A stretch of DNA of 64,000 nt from Microbacterium trichothecenolyticum. Lineage in GTDB: Bacteria > Actinomycetota > Actinomycetes > Actinomycetales > Microbacteriaceae. This document shows positions 1,634 through 15,635 of the stretch, one piece after another. The notes below the pieces were generated by a model. That model was given only the letters and a program-made list of their open reading frames with translations. It searched no databases and was not told where the DNA came from. Made by a program: the position numbers and the translations under genes. The stretch spans positions 124,001-188,000 of the forward strand of contig NZ_JYJA01000037.1 in the NCBI RefSeq assembly GCF_000956465.1, read 5' to 3'. How positions within the stretch are numbered: position 1 is the first letter of the stretch; each line of letters starts with the position of its first letter.

Positions 1634-2275
1634 TCAGCCGCCCCACCAGAGGCGCACCGTGCCGCGGAGGTCGCCGAGCGGCACGGCGCCGTGACCGGGC
1701 TCGGACACCGAGAGGCGCGAGTCCGCCGAGCCGGCGCGGTTGTCGCCCATGACCCAGACCGCACCGTCGGGCACCGCGACGCGGAAGGGGATGTCGCCGC
1801 CCGGGCGCACCTCGCCCGCGTAGGGCTCGTCGAGAGGGTGATCGTTGACGAGGAGCCGACCGCTGCCCGCTTCGCAGCAGATCACGACATCCCCACCGAC
1901 GCCGACGACCCGCTTCACGAGGAGCGTGTCGGGCGTGCCCGACCAGCCCTCGCGGTCGACGACGAGGACGACGTCGCCGCGCGCGGGCGTGCTCCAGCGA
2001 TCGAACACGACGGTGGCACCGCTGTGCAGGGTCGGGCTCATCGAGTCGTTGCGAACGGTCGCGACGCCGAAGGCCGTGGCGATCACGAGCCCGAACACGA
2101 CGGGAGCGACAACCGCTGCGATGGACACGAGCCTGCCCCGCCTGCCGTCGCCCCGCCTGCCGTCGCCCCGGCCGCCGTCGCCCCGCGTCGACGGGTCGGC
2201 CGCGGAATCCCCGGATCCGACCCGATGCGAATCGCCCGTCGAAGCCCGATCGGCCTGTTGAGCGACCGGGGTCAC
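1634..2275 (-). CDS. lepB: Signal peptidase I (S26)
   Basis: A 213-residue membrane peptidase that would cleave signal peptides from exported proteins. It begins with GTG at 2273-2275, which overlaps the TGA stop of the upstream DUF305 gene (GTGA), implying translational coupling. Residues 1-47 are a hydrophilic Gly/Arg/Asp-rich tail with short tandem repeats; about 49-72 is one membrane segment. The catalytic Ser is in RNDSMSPTL (about S78) and the general-base Lys in LLVKRVVG (about K121). The C-terminal box WVMGDNRAGSADSR is intact. The low-complexity tail comes from near-identical GC-rich DNA repeats around 2140-2185. Confidence 0.93.
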   Translation of the reverse strand: MTPVAQQADRASTGDSHRVGSGDSAADPSTRGDGGRGDGRRGDGRRGRLVSIAAVVAPVVFGLVIATAFGVATVRNDSMSPTLHSGATVVFDRWSTPARGDVVLVVDREGWSGTPDTLLVKRVVGVGGDVVICCEAGSGRLLVNDHPLDEPYAGEVRPGGDIPFRVAVPDGAVWVMGDNRAGSADSRLSVSEPGHGAVPLGDLRGTVRLWWGG

Positions 2276-2958
2276 GACGCCTCGGCGAGCAGCGCGGTCA
2301 TGGCGGCGACCTCGCGCTGCTGTTCGACGAGCACGTGCTTGCCGGAGTTGCGGACGAACGCGTTCGATCCCTCACGGACGGCGTTCTCCGCCATCTCGAG
2401 CGCACCCTCGTGGTGCGCGATCATCAGCGCGAGGAACATCCGGTCGGCGGCGACACCGTCGGCCGCGTCCAGTGCGGCCAGCTGCTCGGCGGTCGCCATG
2501 CCTTTCATCTGCATGTGCGCGTGATCTCCGCAGCCGGTCGGGATGGTACCGGCGGCGGCCTGGGCAGCATCGTGACCCTGGTGGCCGCCGGCCGACCCCT
2601 CGGCGGGAATGGCGCCGCGCCACGCGGTCTGCCAGGCACGCATCGTGTCGATCTCGGCGGTCTGGTCCGCGACGATGAAGTCGGCGAGCGCCCGTGTGCG
2701 CTCGCGCACACCGGGGGCGCCGAGCACCAGGCGGCTCAGCTCGAGCGCCTGCTCGTGGTGCGGGATCATGCCCTCGATGTAGCAGTGGTCCTCGAGGGTC
2801 GGGTAGGCGGCGGTGGCGGCATCCGTCATCGCTCCTGAGGCTGCCGCCTGCGGAGCCGAGTCCTCCGGCGTCGTCAGCGCGAGCGCGACGGCGGTGGCGC
2901 CGACGACCACGGTCGACAGGGCCAGCACGACGCCGAGCGCGGCGATGCGATTGCGCAT
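2272..2958 (-). CDS. DUF305 secreted/membrane-anchored protein
   Basis: 228 residues with an N-terminal signal or anchor (about 5-28) and a DUF305 domain (ferritin-like four-helix bundle). Both paired His motifs are present: MIPHHEQALE near residue 64 and LMIAHHEGALEM near residue 178, with a His/Met-rich stretch (GCGDHAHMQMKGM) between. Family members often sit near copper genes, and His/Met richness would suit extracytoplasmic metal binding, but this is inference. ATG 2956-2958 follows an AGGACACC ribosome site. First gene of a coupled pair with signal peptidase. It is one of three DUF305-like genes in the window. Confidence 0.85.
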   Translation of the reverse strand: MRNRIAALGVVLALSTVVVGATAVALALTTPEDSAPQAAASGAMTDAATAAYPTLEDHCYIEGMIPHHEQALELSRLVLGAPGVRERTRALADFIVADQTAEIDTMRAWQTAWRGAIPAEGSAGGHQGHDAAQAAAGTIPTGCGDHAHMQMKGMATAEQLAALDAADGVAADRMFLALMIAHHEGALEMAENAVREGSNAFVRNSGKHVLVEQQREVAAMTALLAEAS

Positions 2959-3052: not shown

Positions 3053-4960
3053 TCAGGCGTGAGCCTTCAGGCTCTGCTGACGCCGCAGGTACCACGAGGT
3101 GCCGGCGAGGCCCGCGCCGGCGACCAGGAGCACGAGCCCCGAGAGCGCCCAGCGATTCGCGTCGGTGCCCGTGGTGGCCAGGGCGCCGAACACCGCTGCG
3201 GGCGACGCGGACGCCACGGTGAACGTGCCCTGCGCCACCGCCGACGAGGTCTGCCCGGTCAGCACGAGGGTGTGCTCTCCGGCCGGCGTGGCCGACGGGA
3301 CGACGAACTGCGCGCTCACGACGCCCTCGCTGTCGGCGACGAACGTGCCGACAGCGACCGGGTCGGAGTGAAGAACGGCGCTCACCGTCTCGCCCGGGGT
3401 GAAGCCGGCGGCCGTGGCCGTCTGCGCGGCACCCGGAGCGACCTCGCCCGAGCCGAACGTCACGGAGGCCGGGGCCGGCGTGGCCCCATTCCCGTTGCCG
3501 TTGCCGTTGCCGTTGCCGTTCCCGTTCCCGTTCCCGTTCCCGTTGCCGTTCCCGTTCCCGTTGCCCGGCGTGGTCGGGGTCGCGGTCGGCGTCGGCTCAC
3601 CCGTCGGCTCGGTCGTCGGGGTGGGCGTCGGCGACGCGGTGGGCGTCGGGGTGATGTTGGGGTTCGGAACGCCCCGCATGTCGCCGTTGACCCACTTGCG
3701 GCCCTCGGGGATGTTGGGGTTCTGCGCGGCGAAGTCGCGCGGGTAGAGGGTGAATCCCTGCCAGTGGATCGGCATGGGGCTCTGGTCCTCGTCCCGGTTG
3801 ATGTGGTGGAAGCCCACGTTCACCCACGCCACCGGGTCCTCGAGCGTCTCGCCGTCGGCGATGTAGTCGGTGACCATCTGACCCGCCTTCGAGGGGATCA
3901 GGTTGTGGCTGGCGTGCACCTCATCGGACTTCGCCGAGGTGAAGGCGATGTCGAAGTCGGTCTCGGGGTTGAGGTTGTACGCCTGGTCGCGCGGCACGAT
4001 GATCTCGTACGAGCGGGCGTGGCCGTCCGCGTTGAGGCTCTCCGGGTTCACGACCCGGTATGCCTCGCGGTTCGCGCCCATCGTCTTGGTCTCGTTCGTG
4101 ATCTGGGTGAGCTGCGTCTCGAGGATCGCGGTGTGGCCGGTGTCGCCGGTCGTGCCGTACTCGCCCGTCGGCGTGGTCGCGAACTTCTCGACGACCTGGT
4201 TCGCGCCCGAGTCGATGCCGAAGTCCACGCGCCAGAACGCCGAGTGGTAGTGGTTGACCGCGAAGTCCTCCTGGCCTGGCGCGATCGGCCAGCCCTGGTT
4301 GACGACGTTCACGTAGTCATTGGGCGACAGGTCGCCGGTCGCGCCGAGGCGCACCGAGATCTCGCCGTCGTCGTGGAACCGGTACTCGGTCTGGTACTCG
4401 TACCAGCCGATCCGCGAGACCGTGTGCAGCACGAGGTCGGTGCCCTGCGCCGCGTACAGCGCGTCACGGGCGATGTTCGAGCGGTACGCGAGGCCCGAGT
4501 CCTCCTCGCCGATGCAGAGCGCGGGGATCGAGCCGCGGGTCGCGTCGACCCACGCGTTGAAGACCTCGCCCACCGGGCAGTCGACGGCCTCGATCGCCTG
4601 CAGCCGGCGACCGCCGACCTGGTAGGTGGTGACGTCGTTGTACTCGGTGGCGCCCGTGTCGTACGGCACGTTGAGCTGCGCGAGCGCGATCGAGTCGAGC
4701 ACGAGGATCGGCGCCGCGTCGTCGCGCGGCTGGTACGCGATCTTGTCGAGCACGAGGCCTCGGTAGGTGTCGAGGCGCCAGCACATCTGCCAGCTCGAGC
4801 CGGACTCCAGCGTCTCCGAGACGAGGGATTCGCCGGAGCAGGACGCCTCGGTGACGGTCTGCGCGGACGCCGCGACCGGCGCCGACAGCACGAGGCCGCC
4901 CGCGAGGAGGGCCATCGCGGTGCCCGCGCCGAGGAGCCGGCGGAGGGAGGTTCGTTTCAT
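3053..4960 (-). CDS. Copper amine oxidase catalytic domain, secreted, LAxTG wall-anchored (partner of a split enzyme)
   Basis: 635 residues from ATG 4958-4960, chosen because GGAG lies 9 bases upstream and a signal peptide follows directly (cleavage near ASA-QT, residue 33). An in-frame ATG at 4973-4975 is the alternative. Residues about 40-425 match the catalytic domain of copper amine oxidases (oxidative deamination of primary amines): SWQMCWRLDTYRGLVLD, LNVPYD, the Asp general base in NAWVDA (about D139), copper His pair NHYH (about H237/H239) and third His in FHHINRDED (about H386). The topaquinone Tyr is about Y187 in GWYEY, where the canonical Asn before Tyr is Trp. Then follow a Pro/Thr linker, an (Asn-Gly)n tract, an Ig-like domain and a sortase-E-type LATTG signal (about 594), membrane segment and RR tail. 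Confidence 0.85.
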   Translation of the reverse strand: MKRTSLRRLLGAGTAMALLAGGLVLSAPVAASAQTVTEASCSGESLVSETLESGSSWQMCWRLDTYRGLVLDKIAYQPRDDAAPILVLDSIALAQLNVPYDTGATEYNDVTTYQVGGRRLQAIEAVDCPVGEVFNAWVDATRGSIPALCIGEEDSGLAYRSNIARDALYAAQGTDLVLHTVSRIGWYEYQTEYRFHDDGEISVRLGATGDLSPNDYVNVVNQGWPIAPGQEDFAVNHYHSAFWRVDFGIDSGANQVVEKFATTPTGEYGTTGDTGHTAILETQLTQITNETKTMGANREAYRVVNPESLNADGHARSYEIIVPRDQAYNLNPETDFDIAFTSAKSDEVHASHNLIPSKAGQMVTDYIADGETLEDPVAWVNVGFHHINRDEDQSPMPIHWQGFTLYPRDFAAQNPNIPEGRKWVNGDMRGVPNPNITPTPTASPTPTPTTEPTGEPTPTATPTTPGNGNGNGNGNGNGNGNGNGNGNGNGNGATPAPASVTFGSGEVAPGAAQTATAAGFTPGETVSAVLHSDPVAVGTFVADSEGVVSAQFVVPSATPAGEHTLVLTGQTSSAVAQGTFTVASASPAAVFGALATTGTDANRWALSGLVLLVAGAGLAGTSWYLRRQQSLKAHA

Positions 4961-4977
4961 CGGGGGTGTCTCCATGG

Positions 4978-5820
4978 TCATGAGATGGACAGGACGGCAC
5001 GCGTCGACAGGTTGACGACGTACGTGCTGGTGGTGAGGAAGGCGCCGCCGTCGACCTGGGCGAGCACCTGCACGCACCGGTCGACGCCGCACGATTCGGC
5101 GCCGAAGGATCCGGCATCCGTCACGAACGAGTGCGCGGTGAGGAGCACCTCGGCGGATGCCGGGGTCAGGACCGAGCCGCCGGTGAGTGCGGCGAACTCG
5201 TCGACCACGGGCTGCGCCGTGTCAGCGTCGAGCAGCAGCTCCCACGCGAACGAGGTCTCGGCATCGGTCGGCGCGGGCTGCGTGCCCGACGCACGGTCGA
5301 CCGATTCGATCGCGCCGTTCGTGACGTTGACGATCATGCTGACCGTCTCGTTGGTGGCGTAGTCGTAGTACAGCGAGAGCAGCCGGCGGTGCCCGTCCGA
5401 GTACGCCTGCGGGTCGGCGACGTCGGTCGAGAGGAACTGCAGGCCAGGCTCGCCGAACAGGTCCTTGCCCGCGGCGAACGCGGGGTCCTGGGCGCCGAGG
5501 AAGCGCACGTACTCGACCTCGGCGCCGGTGAGCCCGTCATACGCGGCGGCGACGGTGGTCGGCTTCGAAACCTCCGTCGCCTTCTCGGGGGCGTCCTCGT
5601 CGGTGCTGTCGGCGGCGATGGGGGTGGACGCCGGCGATTCGGGAGACGAGGTCGCCTGCACGGCGGTCTGCGTCGCGAACACGAGGGCGACAGCCGCGGC
5701 GGTCGCGGCGAGCGCAGAGCCGATGCCCAGCGCACGGGGAGTGAGGAAACGGCCCCGCCTCGAGGGCCGCGGGTCCGAGGGCGGCGAGTCCCCCTCGGTG
5801 GAGAGCTGTTGTTCGGTCAC
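4978..5820 (-). CDS. Membrane/exported protein resembling the N2/N3 domains of copper amine oxidase
   Basis: 280 residues with a cytoplasmic Ser/Pro/Arg-rich start (RPSRRGRFLTPR), one hydrophobic segment at about 30-52 and an extracytoplasmic remainder. The pattern LTGAEVEYVR, then RRLLSLYYDYATNETVSMIV, SGTQPAPTDAE and a final YVVNLSTRAVLSI resembles the small N2/N3 domains that precede the catalytic domain in canonical copper amine oxidases (family knowledge; by-eye alignment). The next gene begins where those domains would end and its first possible ATG is two bases past this stop. I infer that the two products form one enzyme. Otherwise it would be an uncharacterised exported protein. Confidence 0.6.
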   Translation of the reverse strand: MTEQQLSTEGDSPPSDPRPSRRGRFLTPRALGIGSALAATAAAVALVFATQTAVQATSSPESPASTPIAADSTDEDAPEKATEVSKPTTVAAAYDGLTGAEVEYVRFLGAQDPAFAAGKDLFGEPGLQFLSTDVADPQAYSDGHRRLLSLYYDYATNETVSMIVNVTNGAIESVDRASGTQPAPTDAETSFAWELLLDADTAQPVVDEFAALTGGSVLTPASAEVLLTAHSFVTDAGSFGAESCGVDRCVQVLAQVDGGAFLTTSTYVVNLSTRAVLSIS

Positions 5821-6071: not shown

Positions 6072-7511
6072 GTGAGCAGTGCACTCGCGGGCGCGATCGA
6101 GCGGGCTCGTCCGCGCAACGATCTCGGAGCCAGCTCTCCGTTCGCCGGACTCCGCCGACGCCACGCGCACACGATCGACGTGGTCGCGCAGTCCGTGGCG
6201 GCCACCGCTCCTGCCGGCGTGCTCCTGATCCATCCCGCCGCCGCCTTCGCACGAAGCGGCTCCTTCGCCTTCCTCGACATCGCGATCACGATCACCCTGG
6301 TGGTGGGCGTGGGCCTCGTGATCGGCATGTTCGCGCGACGCATCGTGAGCACCGGCTCCCTGTACACGTTCGCGGTACGCGGGCTCGGCTCCCACGCGGG
6401 TCTCGTCACCGGGGCAGCGCTGGGGATCGGCTACCTCGCCGTGGCGATGAACACGCTCACCTCGGGGTCCACACGGCTCGCGAACATCCTCAGCGGAGGC
6501 GATGCGCCCCCGTGGCTCGTGATCGCCCTCATCGCCGGGTTCGGGGCGGTCATCGCCTTCGTCGTCGCCCGTGGATTGCGCATGTCGACGCGCGTGCTGC
6601 TGGTGCTCGAGTCGATCGCCGTCGTGACCGTGCTATGCCTCTCCATCGCCGCGCTCAGCCTCACCCGCTGGGACGTCGGTCTGCTCATCCCTCGCGCCCC
6701 GGATGTGTCGCTCGAGGCGATCATCACCGGCGTCGCCTTCGCCCTGATCGGCTTCGTCGGATTCGAGAGCGGCGCCGCGCTCGGCCCCGAGACCCGTCGC
6801 CCGTTCGCCGCCGTCCCCCGCGCGATCATGGTGAGCGTCGGCGCCACGGGGCTCGTGATGCTCGTCGGCACCGCGGCGCAGCTGTCGATCGTCGCAGAGC
6901 GCCCGGGTGCGGCTTCCCTCGCGTCCGTCACCGGACTCGCGACCCTCATCGACGTGATCGTCGCGATCTCGTTCCTCGCGTGCGCGCTCGCCATGACCAA
7001 CGCCGCGACGCGATTGGTCTTCGCGATGAGCCGCGAGGGGCTGATGCCCGCGGCGTTCGGGCGCGTGTCGCGGCGCGGGGTGCCGGCGATCGGCGGCGTA
7101 CTGCTTGCTTCTGCGGTCACGCTGGTGCCGGTCGCGATCCTCGCGTGGGGAGGCAGCCGACAGGACATGCGCATCGTCACCTCGCCGGCGTCGATCCTCG
7201 GCTTCGTGCTCGCCTACGCGCTGGTGTGCGCGGCGGCTCCGGTGTTCCTCGCTCGGATCGGCGAGCTCACCGTCCGGGCGGTCGTGCTCAGCGTCGGTCC
7301 GCTCGCGGGGCTGCTGTGCGTGCTGGGCTTCTACCTCGCCGCGACGCTGCGCGACAATCCGGCGGGTCTGCTGTGGTCCGTGGGCATCCTCGCCGCGGTC
7401 GTGGTGGCCGGTTCGGTCCGCCTGGCGCGCCATCCCCGTGTGGCCGCCCGCGTCGGCGTGCACGACTGGCCGACCGACGCCGACTGCATCGACGGGCCGG
7501 CGCGGACGTGA
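6072..7511 (+). CDS. APC-superfamily amino acid/amine permease
   Basis: 479 residues with about 12 hydrophobic segments from residue 33 to 455. It begins at GTG 6072 behind GAGGAGG. The N-terminal helix VVAQSVAATAPAGVLLI and the later segment AFALIGFVGFESGAALGPETRRP correspond to the conserved substrate-site helices of amino acid-polyamine-organocation carriers, which are usually proton-coupled importers. Its stop overlaps the GTG of an IclR regulator (GTGA). Divergence from the putative amine oxidase suggests amine or amino-acid uptake, which is inference only. Confidence 0.85.
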   Translation: MSSALAGAIERARPRNDLGASSPFAGLRRRHAHTIDVVAQSVAATAPAGVLLIHPAAAFARSGSFAFLDIAITITLVVGVGLVIGMFARRIVSTGSLYTFAVRGLGSHAGLVTGAALGIGYLAVAMNTLTSGSTRLANILSGGDAPPWLVIALIAGFGAVIAFVVARGLRMSTRVLLVLESIAVVTVLCLSIAALSLTRWDVGLLIPRAPDVSLEAIITGVAFALIGFVGFESGAALGPETRRPFAAVPRAIMVSVGATGLVMLVGTAAQLSIVAERPGAASLASVTGLATLIDVIVAISFLACALAMTNAATRLVFAMSREGLMPAAFGRVSRRGVPAIGGVLLASAVTLVPVAILAWGGSRQDMRIVTSPASILGFVLAYALVCAAAPVFLARIGELTVRAVVLSVGPLAGLLCVLGFYLAATLRDNPAGLLWSVGILAAVVVAGSVRLARHPRVAARVGVHDWPTDADCIDGPART

Positions 7512-8254
7512 ACGGCGCGGGCCTCGCGGGCGACACCCGCCTGCCGGAGAAGGGTCTGGGCCTGGCTCTCGAGATCCTCGAGCAGGTCGCCCGCGACGAC
7601 CGCGGCGCCTCGGCGGCCGAGATCGCCCGTGCCGTCGGCGCGCCCCGCGCGACGGTGTACCGCGTGGTCAACTCGCTCGTGCGCGACGAGTATCTCGTGC
7701 GTCGCGGCGACTTCTCGGGGTTCCTGCTCGGAACGCGCGTGCTGGAGCTCGCCGCGATCGTGGGCGCGCGCACCCGGCCCGAGCACGCGGCGGTGGTGGC
7801 CCGGCTGCGCGACGACACCGGCGAGGCCGTGCACCTGTTCGCCTTCCACCGCTCGGGCCTGATGGTCCTCGACGAGGACGAGTCCCAGCCGCTGTCGGAC
7901 CGCGACGCCCTCCTCGCCGATCCCACGCGCTCGGCGATCGGACATCTCTGGCTCGTCGCGCACCCGGACCGTCGGATGCCGCAGGCGCCGAACTGGCGCG
8001 TCGCCCCGCCCGCGGACGACGTGCGCGCGATCCACGAGGCGTACGCCGTCCGCGGCTACACCGAGCAGGCCGCCCTGCTCACCTCCGATCGCGGCTGCCT
8101 CGCGGTCCCGATCCACGACGACGCGGCCCGTCCGATCGGGGCGGTGACGCTGTCGACCTCGATCTCGCGCCTCTCGGTGGCGGCCCGTCACGTCGGCGCG
8201 CTGCGTGACGCCGCGCGCGCGCTCGCTCCACTCGGCTCGCTCAGCGGCTGGTGA
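7508..8254 (+). CDS. IclR-family transcriptional regulator
   Basis: 248 residues from GTG 7508-7510, overlapping the permease stop by four bases. The N-terminal winged helix-turn-helix (LALEILEQVARDDRGASAAEIARAVGAPRATVYRVVNSL, about residues 15-53, given here as a family fit) is followed by the IclR effector domain with YTEQAALLTSDRGCLAVPI and GAVTLSTSISRL. It probably controls the coupled permease and perhaps itself. Effector unknown. Confidence 0.88.
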   Translation: MNGAGLAGDTRLPEKGLGLALEILEQVARDDRGASAAEIARAVGAPRATVYRVVNSLVRDEYLVRRGDFSGFLLGTRVLELAAIVGARTRPEHAAVVARLRDDTGEAVHLFAFHRSGLMVLDEDESQPLSDRDALLADPTRSAIGHLWLVAHPDRRMPQAPNWRVAPPADDVRAIHEAYAVRGYTEQAALLTSDRGCLAVPIHDDAARPIGAVTLSTSISRLSVAARHVGALRDAARALAPLGSLSGW

Positions 8255-8404: not shown

Positions 8405-9043
8405 TCACGGCAGGGCGTCGAGGATGCCCTGCAGCGTCTCCTGGTCGGCCTCGGCCTGCTTCAGCACCTCTTCGGCCGATCCGGCTACAGCCGGATGCGG
8501 GTCGCCCTCGAGGATGAGCGTGACCAGCGCGATCATCCCGGCATTCTGCGCCTGGAGGATCTCTGCGAAGCGGCGCTCGGCATCGGGGTGCTGCGCGTCG
8601 ACGAACCCCTGCAGAATGCTCCACGACGGCATGCCGGGCATCTGCGCGTGGTCGGCGCCGTGGCCGCCGCACGGCCCGTCGGCCGGCGGCTCGGCAGGAC
8701 GCGCATCCGCCCATGAGAGGTACCACGCCCGCAGGTCTTCGAGCTCGTCTTCGCTGCGCGCCGCGATGCCGGTGGCGAACCCGCTCGCCCCGGCGTCGAT
8801 CCCCTGCTTGCGCAGCAGGGTGTCTGCGAGTTCCTGCTCCTTGACCCGGTAGTAGATCATCGCCTCGACGTAGCAGTAGTCGTCGGCCGTCACCGGTGCC
8901 GTGGGCGACGCCGAGGGCGACGAGGACGCCGAGGGCGCTGCATCCGTGTTCCCGGCCGTTGCGGCGATCGCAAGCCACACGCCGACCCCCGCCGTCGCCA
9001 GCGCGAGCGTCAGCGCGACGACGAGAACCACTGTGCGGCGCAC
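8405..9043 (-). CDS. Degenerate DUF305-like exported protein
   Basis: 212 residues, signal/anchor at about 5-28, then a Ser/Pro linker and a domain that follows DUF305 in outline: DDYCYVEAMIYYRVKEQELADTL, a GPCGGHGADHAQMPGM stretch, then EILQAQNAGMIALVTLIL. The paired His motifs of the family are replaced (MIYYRV and AQNAGMIAL), so classical metal binding is unlikely. Start ATG 9041-9043. It may have a structural or partner role with the intact DUF305 proteins elsewhere in the window. Confidence 0.7.
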   Translation of the reverse strand: MRRTVVLVVALTLALATAGVGVWLAIAATAGNTDAAPSASSSPSASPTAPVTADDYCYVEAMIYYRVKEQELADTLLRKQGIDAGASGFATGIAARSEDELEDLRAWYLSWADARPAEPPADGPCGGHGADHAQMPGMPSWSILQGFVDAQHPDAERRFAEILQAQNAGMIALVTLILEGDPHPAVAGSAEEVLKQAEADQETLQGILDALP

Positions 9044-14960: not shown

Positions 14961-15635
14961 GTGTCGGACGAGCCCTCGGCGGGAAGCGCCCGGCGATGGT
15001 TCGTCATCGCCGTCGCGCTCATCCTCATCGCGGGCCTCGCGTTCGCGGTGGGACGCTTCTCGACGTTCGGCTCACAGGCGGCCGCGTCGAGCCCGGGCAC
15101 GAACTCGCCTGAGGCCGGGTTCTCGCGCGACATGCAGGTGCACCACGCTCAGGCGATCGAGATGGCGATGGAGATCTACCGCAAGACCGACGACGACGAG
15201 CTTCGCGTGCTCTCGTACGACATCGCGACGGGTCAGGCCGGCCAGCGCGGCGAGATGTTCGACTGGCTCGTGCGGTGGGGTCTCCCGCAGTCCGGCGGAC
15301 CGATGATGCAGTGGATGGACGCCTCCGACGCGGACCACACGCACGGCGGCACGTCCGCCGAGCCGATGAGCGACGAAGAGGCCCACGAAGCGATGGGAAT
15401 GGCGTCGGCCGACGAGATCGCCGCGCTCAAGGCGGCGACAGGCGTGGCGGCGGACTGCCAGTTCCTGACGCTGATGATCCGCCACCACGAGGGCGCCATC
15501 CCGATGGCGGAGGCCCTCCTCGAGCTCGGCACCGACGCTCGCGCCCTCGAGGTCGCGACCGCGATCAAGAACGGTCAGACGGCCGAGATCGACGCGATGC
15601 AGTCGATCCAGGCGCGGCTCGGCTGCACCGGCTGA
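14961..15635 (+). CDS. DUF305 protein, membrane-anchored
   Basis: 224 residues from GTG 14961-14963. One membrane segment at about 12-33, then an intact DUF305 domain: FSRDMQVHHAQAIEMAMEIY and FLTLMIRHHEGAIPMAEALL give both His pairs, with Met- and His-containing loops between. Co-transcribed with the DUF3105 gene. Metal handling outside the membrane is plausible but inferred. Confidence 0.88.
   Translation: MSDEPSAGSARRWFVIAVALILIAGLAFAVGRFSTFGSQAAASSPGTNSPEAGFSRDMQVHHAQAIEMAMEIYRKTDDDELRVLSYDIATGQAGQRGEMFDWLVRWGLPQSGGPMMQWMDASDADHTHGGTSAEPMSDEEAHEAMGMASADEIAALKAATGVAADCQFLTLMIRHHEGAIPMAEALLELGTDARALEVATAIKNGQTAEIDAMQSIQARLGCTG

What the first reader, a model, noticed from the sequence alone, without database searches (positions are those of the whole stretch)
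3053..5820. Copper amine oxidase split into two adjacent genes, with wall anchoring and a non-canonical cofactor motif
The upstream gene looks like N2/N3 domains and the next gene starts exactly where the catalytic domain would begin. The break has its own GGAG site and a complete signal peptide, so it is not a simple frameshift. Copper His and Asp residues are kept, but the Asn before the topaquinone Tyr (normally Asn-Tyr-Asp/Glu) is Trp. The catalytic protein ends in LATTG plus membrane anchor, so the enzyme would be displayed on the wall while its partner is membrane-anchored.
Basis: partly seen in the sequence, partly recalled or inferred. Interest (0 to 1): 0.7.

Follow-up and report, generated by a model that had tools for sequence, protein, structure and literature searches.

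The report
Two-piece copper amine oxidase
Some actinobacteria encode a copper enzyme, normally a single chain, as two separately exported proteins, with tryptophan replacing an amino acid beside the self-made cofactor that is described as strictly conserved, which gives a natural test of how that cofactor is controlled.

Summary
On the minus strand, 4978-5820 encodes a 280-aa exported protein and 3053-4960 a 635-aa exported protein with only the catalytic domain of a copper amine oxidase (CAO). The upstream protein is the missing N2+N3 part: profile-profile match over both domains, AlphaFold2 pLDDT 94.9, and solved CAOs as best structural matches. It is no frame error: in 46 named loci (Microbacterium to Streptomyces, Nonomuraea and Solirubrobacter) the pair is adjacent and never fused, the catalytic domains form one clade, and both genes are under purifying selection. 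Copper His residues, catalytic Asp and cofactor-precursor Tyr are kept, but the preceding Asn is Trp in 46 of 49 distinct readable clade sequences, against Asn in 55 of 55 single-chain CAOs inspected. The tree suggests the split came first, then Asn to Trp. A DUF305/CopM-like gene follows in 24 of 46 loci. Best reading: a secreted two-subunit CAO; complex, cofactor and activity are inferred. LxxTG wall-sorting endings occur in 15 of 16 named Microbacteriaceae loci and none of the other 30; membrane anchoring of the partner is unproven. New variant of a known kind; no description found in ten literature searches.

The parts
4978..5820 (-). N2-N3 protein (P0002, 280 aa): N-terminal hydrophobic segment at about residues 33-50, linker, then N2 (about 97-174) and N3 (about 175-280)
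   Evidence: domain limits read from the alignments and the model
3053..4960 (-). catalytic protein (P0001, 635 aa): signal peptide 1-33 (by eye), CAO enzyme domain 56-416, Pro/Thr and Asn-Gly stalk, C-terminal beta-type domain, LATTG sorting signal; alternative start at 4982
4397..4405 (-). W186-Y187-E188, in place of Asn-Tyr-Asp/Glu around the cofactor precursor Tyr
4634..4636 (-). D109, equivalent of the catalytic base
4244..4252 (-). H237-Y-H239, two copper ligands
3803..3805 (-). H386, third copper ligand
3167..3181 (-). LATTG sortase-type motif
   Evidence: (LAXTG model 18.6 bits, below its cut-off of 65)
4978..4985 (-). end of the upstream gene with possible ATGA overlap with an alternative start of the catalytic gene
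2272..2958 (-). DUF305 protein, CopM-like, likely extracytoplasmic copper binder
   Evidence: PF03713 130.4 bits, cut-off 27; CopM model 83.7 bits, below cut-off 90; downstream in 24 of 46 loci
1634..2275 (-). signal peptidase I
   Evidence: downstream in 20 of 46 loci; link to the oxidase is inference
6072..7511 (+). divergent amino-acid permease
   Evidence: PF00324; within 2.5 kb in 20 of 46 loci; link is inference
7508..8254 (+). IclR-type regulator
   Evidence: PF09339; link is inference

Best explanation
A secreted two-subunit copper amine oxidase. The catalytic chain supplies the copper site and makes a topaquinone-type cofactor from Y187; the separately exported N2-N3 chain docks where those domains sit in ordinary CAOs and completes the outer part of the substrate channel. 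Shown: homology of both halves, the conserved split and gene order, the retained copper/base/Tyr set, the Trp, and purifying selection. Inferred: that the chains associate; that Trp186 lies over the cofactor ring in place of the Asn carboxamide and restrains it by bulk or stacking; that the neighbouring DUF305 protein handles copper for it; that it oxidises a primary amine outside the cell; and that in Microbacteriaceae a sortase fixes the catalytic chain to the wall.
For: Catalytic fold and family. N2-N3 identity. N gene just upstream on the same strand in 45 of 46 named loci by tblastn, in the 46th (L070) by an ORF of the N cluster; the six strong N matches among 396 phylum genomes all have the divergent catalytic gene in the same locus. 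One clade, 53 split rows against 33 single-chain rows. Cu ligands, base, precursor Tyr 49 of 49 distinct readable sequences. dN/dS about 0.04-0.10 (catalytic, 7 pairs) and 0.11-0.21 (N, 5 pairs). DUF305 next door in 24 of 46.
Against: No complex was modelled and no activity is known. [quoted passage not shown] An Ala at the Asn slows cofactor formation 180-fold and kcat 160-fold in the Arthrobacter enzyme (PMC9491219), so loss of Asn is not harmless. DUF305, permease and signal peptidase are missing in many loci, including the Streptomyces ones examined. Different anchors of the two chains might keep them apart.
Confidence: 0.65

Rival explanations
1. The catalytic chain works alone; the N2-N3 protein is an assembly chaperone, inhibitor or tether and not a permanent subunit.
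For: N evolves faster than the catalytic domain (dN/dS 0.11-0.21 against 0.04-0.10); both chains have their own export signals.
Against: N keeps both domains co-linear with ordinary CAOs and is kept next to the catalytic gene in all lineages seen.
Confidence: 0.2
2. The protein is no longer an amine oxidase: a copper protein with another chemistry or a binding role, without topaquinone.
For: Asn replaced by Trp in 46 of 49 and the Thr three before replaced throughout (Thr in 31 of 31 family single-chain CAOs); only 22-26% identity to those.
Against: Every copper, base and Tyr residue tested is invariant in the clade, which is unlikely without that chemistry.
Confidence: 0.14
3. Local frameshift or sequencing error, or a decaying gene.
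For: Some records in the clade are broken: L066 in the catalytic gene, L055 in N.
Against: Same split in all 54 loci, each part with its own export signal where looked at, purifying selection.
Confidence: 0.01

Closest known systems
Arthrobacter globiformis phenylethylamine oxidase (AGAO) and other bacterial CAOs (PF01179)
   Same: Catalytic fold (Z 36.7 to 1avk, 363 aligned, 3.1 A); three Cu His, Asp base, two neighbouring Tyr, Met; N2 and N3 folds
   Different: Two genes and two exported chains instead of one; the segment linking N3 to the catalytic domain is replaced by the gene break; Trp for Asn and Arg/Gln/Lys/Ala for Thr in the cofactor motif; about 22-26% identity to 31 single-chain CAOs of the family
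AGAO N381A and HPAO N404 mutants (PMC9491219, PMC3382800; passages seen)
   Same: Same position altered
   Different: Laboratory changes to Ala or Asp; here a natural, fixed Trp
CopM / DUF305 copper proteins (PMC4335983; title and passages seen)
   Same: Neighbour gene is DUF305 over its cut-off, exported, His/Met-rich
   Different: Below the CopM model's cut-off (83.7 against 90 bits); sits by an oxidase instead of the copRS genes

Membership tests
Copper amine oxidase, catalytic domain family PF01179 | profile score over the curated cut-off | tested here: met
   144.2 bits, cut-off 27
Copper amine oxidase (TPQ-dependent) | three copper His, catalytic Asp, precursor Tyr | tested here: met
   49 of 49 distinct readable clade sequences at each place
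[quoted passage not shown]
   Arg-X-X-Trp-Tyr-Glu here; Trp 46 of 49, Asn 3 of 49 in the clade. So filed as a variant, not as a canonical TPQ CAO
Copper amine oxidase (TPQ-dependent) | N2 and N3 domains in the same chain as the catalytic domain | tested here: not met
   they are in a separate gene
Copper amine oxidase (TPQ-dependent) | dimer; topaquinone formed; amine oxidised to aldehyde with H2O2 | not testable with these tools
   needs protein
CopM metallochaperone (NF049983) | score over the curated cut-off | tested here: not met
   83.7 against 90 bits; the wider DUF305 family is met
LAxTG sortase substrate | LAxTG-type motif, hydrophobic stretch, basic tail, and a sortase in the genome | tested here: met
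   the only NCBIfam LAXTG model hit is below cut-off; anchoring itself not testable here

The most novel reading that the evidence does not exclude
Trp186 is not only a substitute clamp but takes part in the cofactor: the Cu-Tyr187-Trp186 site makes a quinone with altered redox behaviour or a Trp-linked cofactor, in an enzyme whose substrate channel is completed by a removable second subunit at the cell surface.
Probability: 0.12. Interest if true: 0.85.

Novelty: new variant of a known kind. Interest (0 to 1): 0.6.

Why it matters
Work on CAOs rests on an Asn called strictly conserved and on single-chain subunits (PMC3382800, passages). This clade departs from both in nature while keeping the rest of the active site tested here, and its apparently early-branching members keep Asn, so the effect of Trp on cofactor formation and ring movement could be tested with natural pairs. 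A detachable N2-N3 chain would let the role of those domains be measured by adding them back. It also offers a possible client enzyme for a DUF305 copper protein.

Tried and rejected
Frame error or decay: rejected. P0002 by sequence alone was not enough: single-sequence Pfam gave a sub-threshold N2 hit (E 0.034); PDB sequence searches gave weak methionine synthase hits (E 0.05 or worse) and, with the profile, none; of 31 aligned members 4 matched AGAO-like_N2 (best E 0.0064) and 5 matched PT-TG (best E 0.058), all weak. Profile-profile and fold comparison settled it. The TrAA12 match of P0001 (24.3 bits, cut-off 30.9, residues 465-520) lies on the low-complexity stalk and was rejected.

In the phylum search with the N profile, 10 of 396 genomes matched: 6 strongly; 4 weakly (best E 2.2e-8 to 4.1e-4). 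Of the weak ones, L116 and L117 carry single-chain CAO frames with Asn; L115, L118 and L119 gave no motif hit and were not resolved.

Two single-chain matches with short open frames were checked as possible second splits: L135 begins at the end of its stretch; L149 keeps the linker before the catalytic domain and Asn, and what lies upstream of it was not resolved. A plasmid search found 80 records, all under 60% identity; the 15 listed are at 25.5-28.9%.

Mended on the way: my motif search failed and partly; redone. The permease count (1 of 46) used a wrong distance rule; corrected (20 of 46). One search counted the frameshifted row L066 (Trp 47 of 50); recounted without it (46 of 49); the other frame of L066 reads GWYEY.

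Not done: complex prediction, coevolution, a signal-peptide program, copper or cofactor modelling. The tree is a quick search with SH-aLRT only, and the split clade sits on a branch of about 4 changes per column, so the place of its root, and with it the order split-then-Trp, is unsure.

Literature: ten searches of an open-licence library listed no split CAO and no natural Trp at this place; only listings were seen, apart from passages of PMC9491219, PMC3382800 and PMC4335983.

Full report
What is there. The minus strand carries, in order, P0002 (4978-5820, 280 aa), P0001 (3053-4960, 635 aa), a DUF305 protein (2272-2958) and signal peptidase I (1634-2275); on the plus strand lie a permease (6072-7511) and an IclR-type regulator (7508-8254). 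P0001 has the CAO enzyme domain alone (144.2 bits, residues 56-416). The genome also holds two ordinary single-chain CAOs (511 and 492 bits). Between the stop of P0002 and the ATG of P0001 lie 17 bases with GGAG, and an earlier in-frame ATG overlaps the stop as ATGA.

The upstream protein is N2-N3. Alone it gives only a weak Pfam hit and no CAO in the PDB by sequence. An alignment of 31 members compared with 24 ordinary N2-N3 regions gives 94.8% probability over 171 co-linear columns. Its HMM over 396 phylum genomes gives six strong matches (E 7.3e-78 or lower), four weak ones, and a weak second match (E 7.3e-6) in the window's genome at the N2 region of its ordinary CAO. The six strong ones all have the divergent catalytic gene in the same locus. 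AlphaFold2 gives pLDDT 94.9; the 50 Foldseek matches listed, all those with E <= 0.001, are CAOs; VIA-align pairs model residues 2-196 with 17-207 of 1ekm (Z 10.5, 173 aligned, 3.6 A) and 7-196 with 9-190 of AGAO entries (Z about 8.4-9.0).

The split is old and stable. A pattern-based scan of 84,980 species genomes returned 46 loci, a lower bound. N lies just upstream on the same strand in 45 of 46; in L070 an ORF of the N cluster does. The family search gave 8 close loci in 398 genomes, one being the window itself, also with N upstream. No fusion was seen; where both lie in one frame a stop separates them. Of 396 phylum genomes, 6 reach 583 bits or more with the catalytic profile and the next match has 128.5. 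On a tree of 86 rows the 53 split rows are one side of one branch, SH-aLRT 100. In 19 representative loci of the 46 the flanks differ between lineages while N and catalytic gene stay together.

The active site. Among 49 distinct readable clade sequences C60, Y100, D109, C128, C149, Y187, Y189, H237, H239, H386 and M396 are 49 of 49. Position 186 is Trp in 46 and Asn in 3 (Solirubrobacter and L070); 188 is Glu in 46 and Thr in 3 (Nonomuraea). The place three before 186 is Arg, Gln, Lys or Ala; it is Thr in 31 of 31 family single-chain CAOs. Asn is found in those 31 of 31 and in 24 of 24 single-chain CAOs from the phylum search (22, 2). The Asn rows fall outside a 49-row Trp group, SH-aLRT 98, so Trp probably arose once and after the split; the long branch makes the root unsure. 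The catalytic model (pLDDT 86.3) matches CAOs at Z up to 37.0.

Selection. By Nei-Gojobori, dN/dS against chosen Microbacterium relatives is about 0.04-0.10 for the catalytic domain (7 pairs) and 0.11-0.21 for N (5 pairs; in 2 more the match did not reach the end).

How it probably works. CAO subunits have small D2 and D3 domains before the catalytic D4, and residues 155-156 of the yeast enzyme help line the substrate channel (PMC3382800, passages; that these lie in D3 is recalled). I infer that the second chain docks there. Asn381 of AGAO sits on the cofactor ring and limits its rotation; Ala there slows cofactor formation 180-fold and kcat 160-fold, but the cofactor still forms (PMC9491219, abstract and passages). 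Trp would be a larger lid and may stack on the ring. DUF305 follows in 24 of 46 loci, which suggests copper supply outside the cell; CopM of Synechocystis is a DUF305 copper-binding protein of periplasm and extracellular space (PMC4335983, title and passages). A permease lies within 2.5 kb in 20 of 46 and signal peptidase I downstream in 20 of 46; tblastn found neither nor DUF305 in the Streptomyces loci, so they are not essential parts.

Anchoring. An LxxTG-type ending is present in 15 of the 16 named Microbacteriaceae loci, in 0 of the other 30 named loci, and in 8 of 8 loci of the family search. The genome has two sortase-family genes. The hydrophobic segment of P0002 after about 30 residues may be an anchor; some Streptomyces partners look cleavable by eye. 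So wall display is a feature of one family and the membrane anchor is open.

Verdict. A real, conserved two-gene variant of the copper amine oxidase with a natural replacement of the Asn described as strictly conserved. Ten searches of an open-licence library listed no description of it. Complex, cofactor and activity remain to be shown.

Noticed in passing
window 8405-9043 (-) and about 15111-15608 (+): Two further DUF305 proteins lie in this window, of four matches in the genome. The one at 8405-9043 scores low (40.8 bits) and has lost the His-His pair seen in P0003.
   Followed up: partly
L062, L067, L074, L060, L076, L078 flanks: Streptomyces and Nonomuraea members lie next to one family of large enzymes that look like GH13 alpha-glucan enzymes by eye (cluster fam3; not scanned).
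   Followed up: no
L075, L076, L078 catalytic genes: Nonomuraea members change a second cofactor-motif residue: Trp-Tyr-Thr instead of Trp-Tyr-Glu.
   Followed up: no
window about 3488-3566 (-): The stalk of P0001 is a run of Asn-Gly repeats coded by a near-regular six-base repeat, which may vary in length between strains.
   Followed up: no
L070 (Microbacterium sp. 5K110): A very divergent second Microbacterium form: Asn kept, no sorting signal, DUF305 upstream and permease downstream on the same strand.
   Followed up: partly
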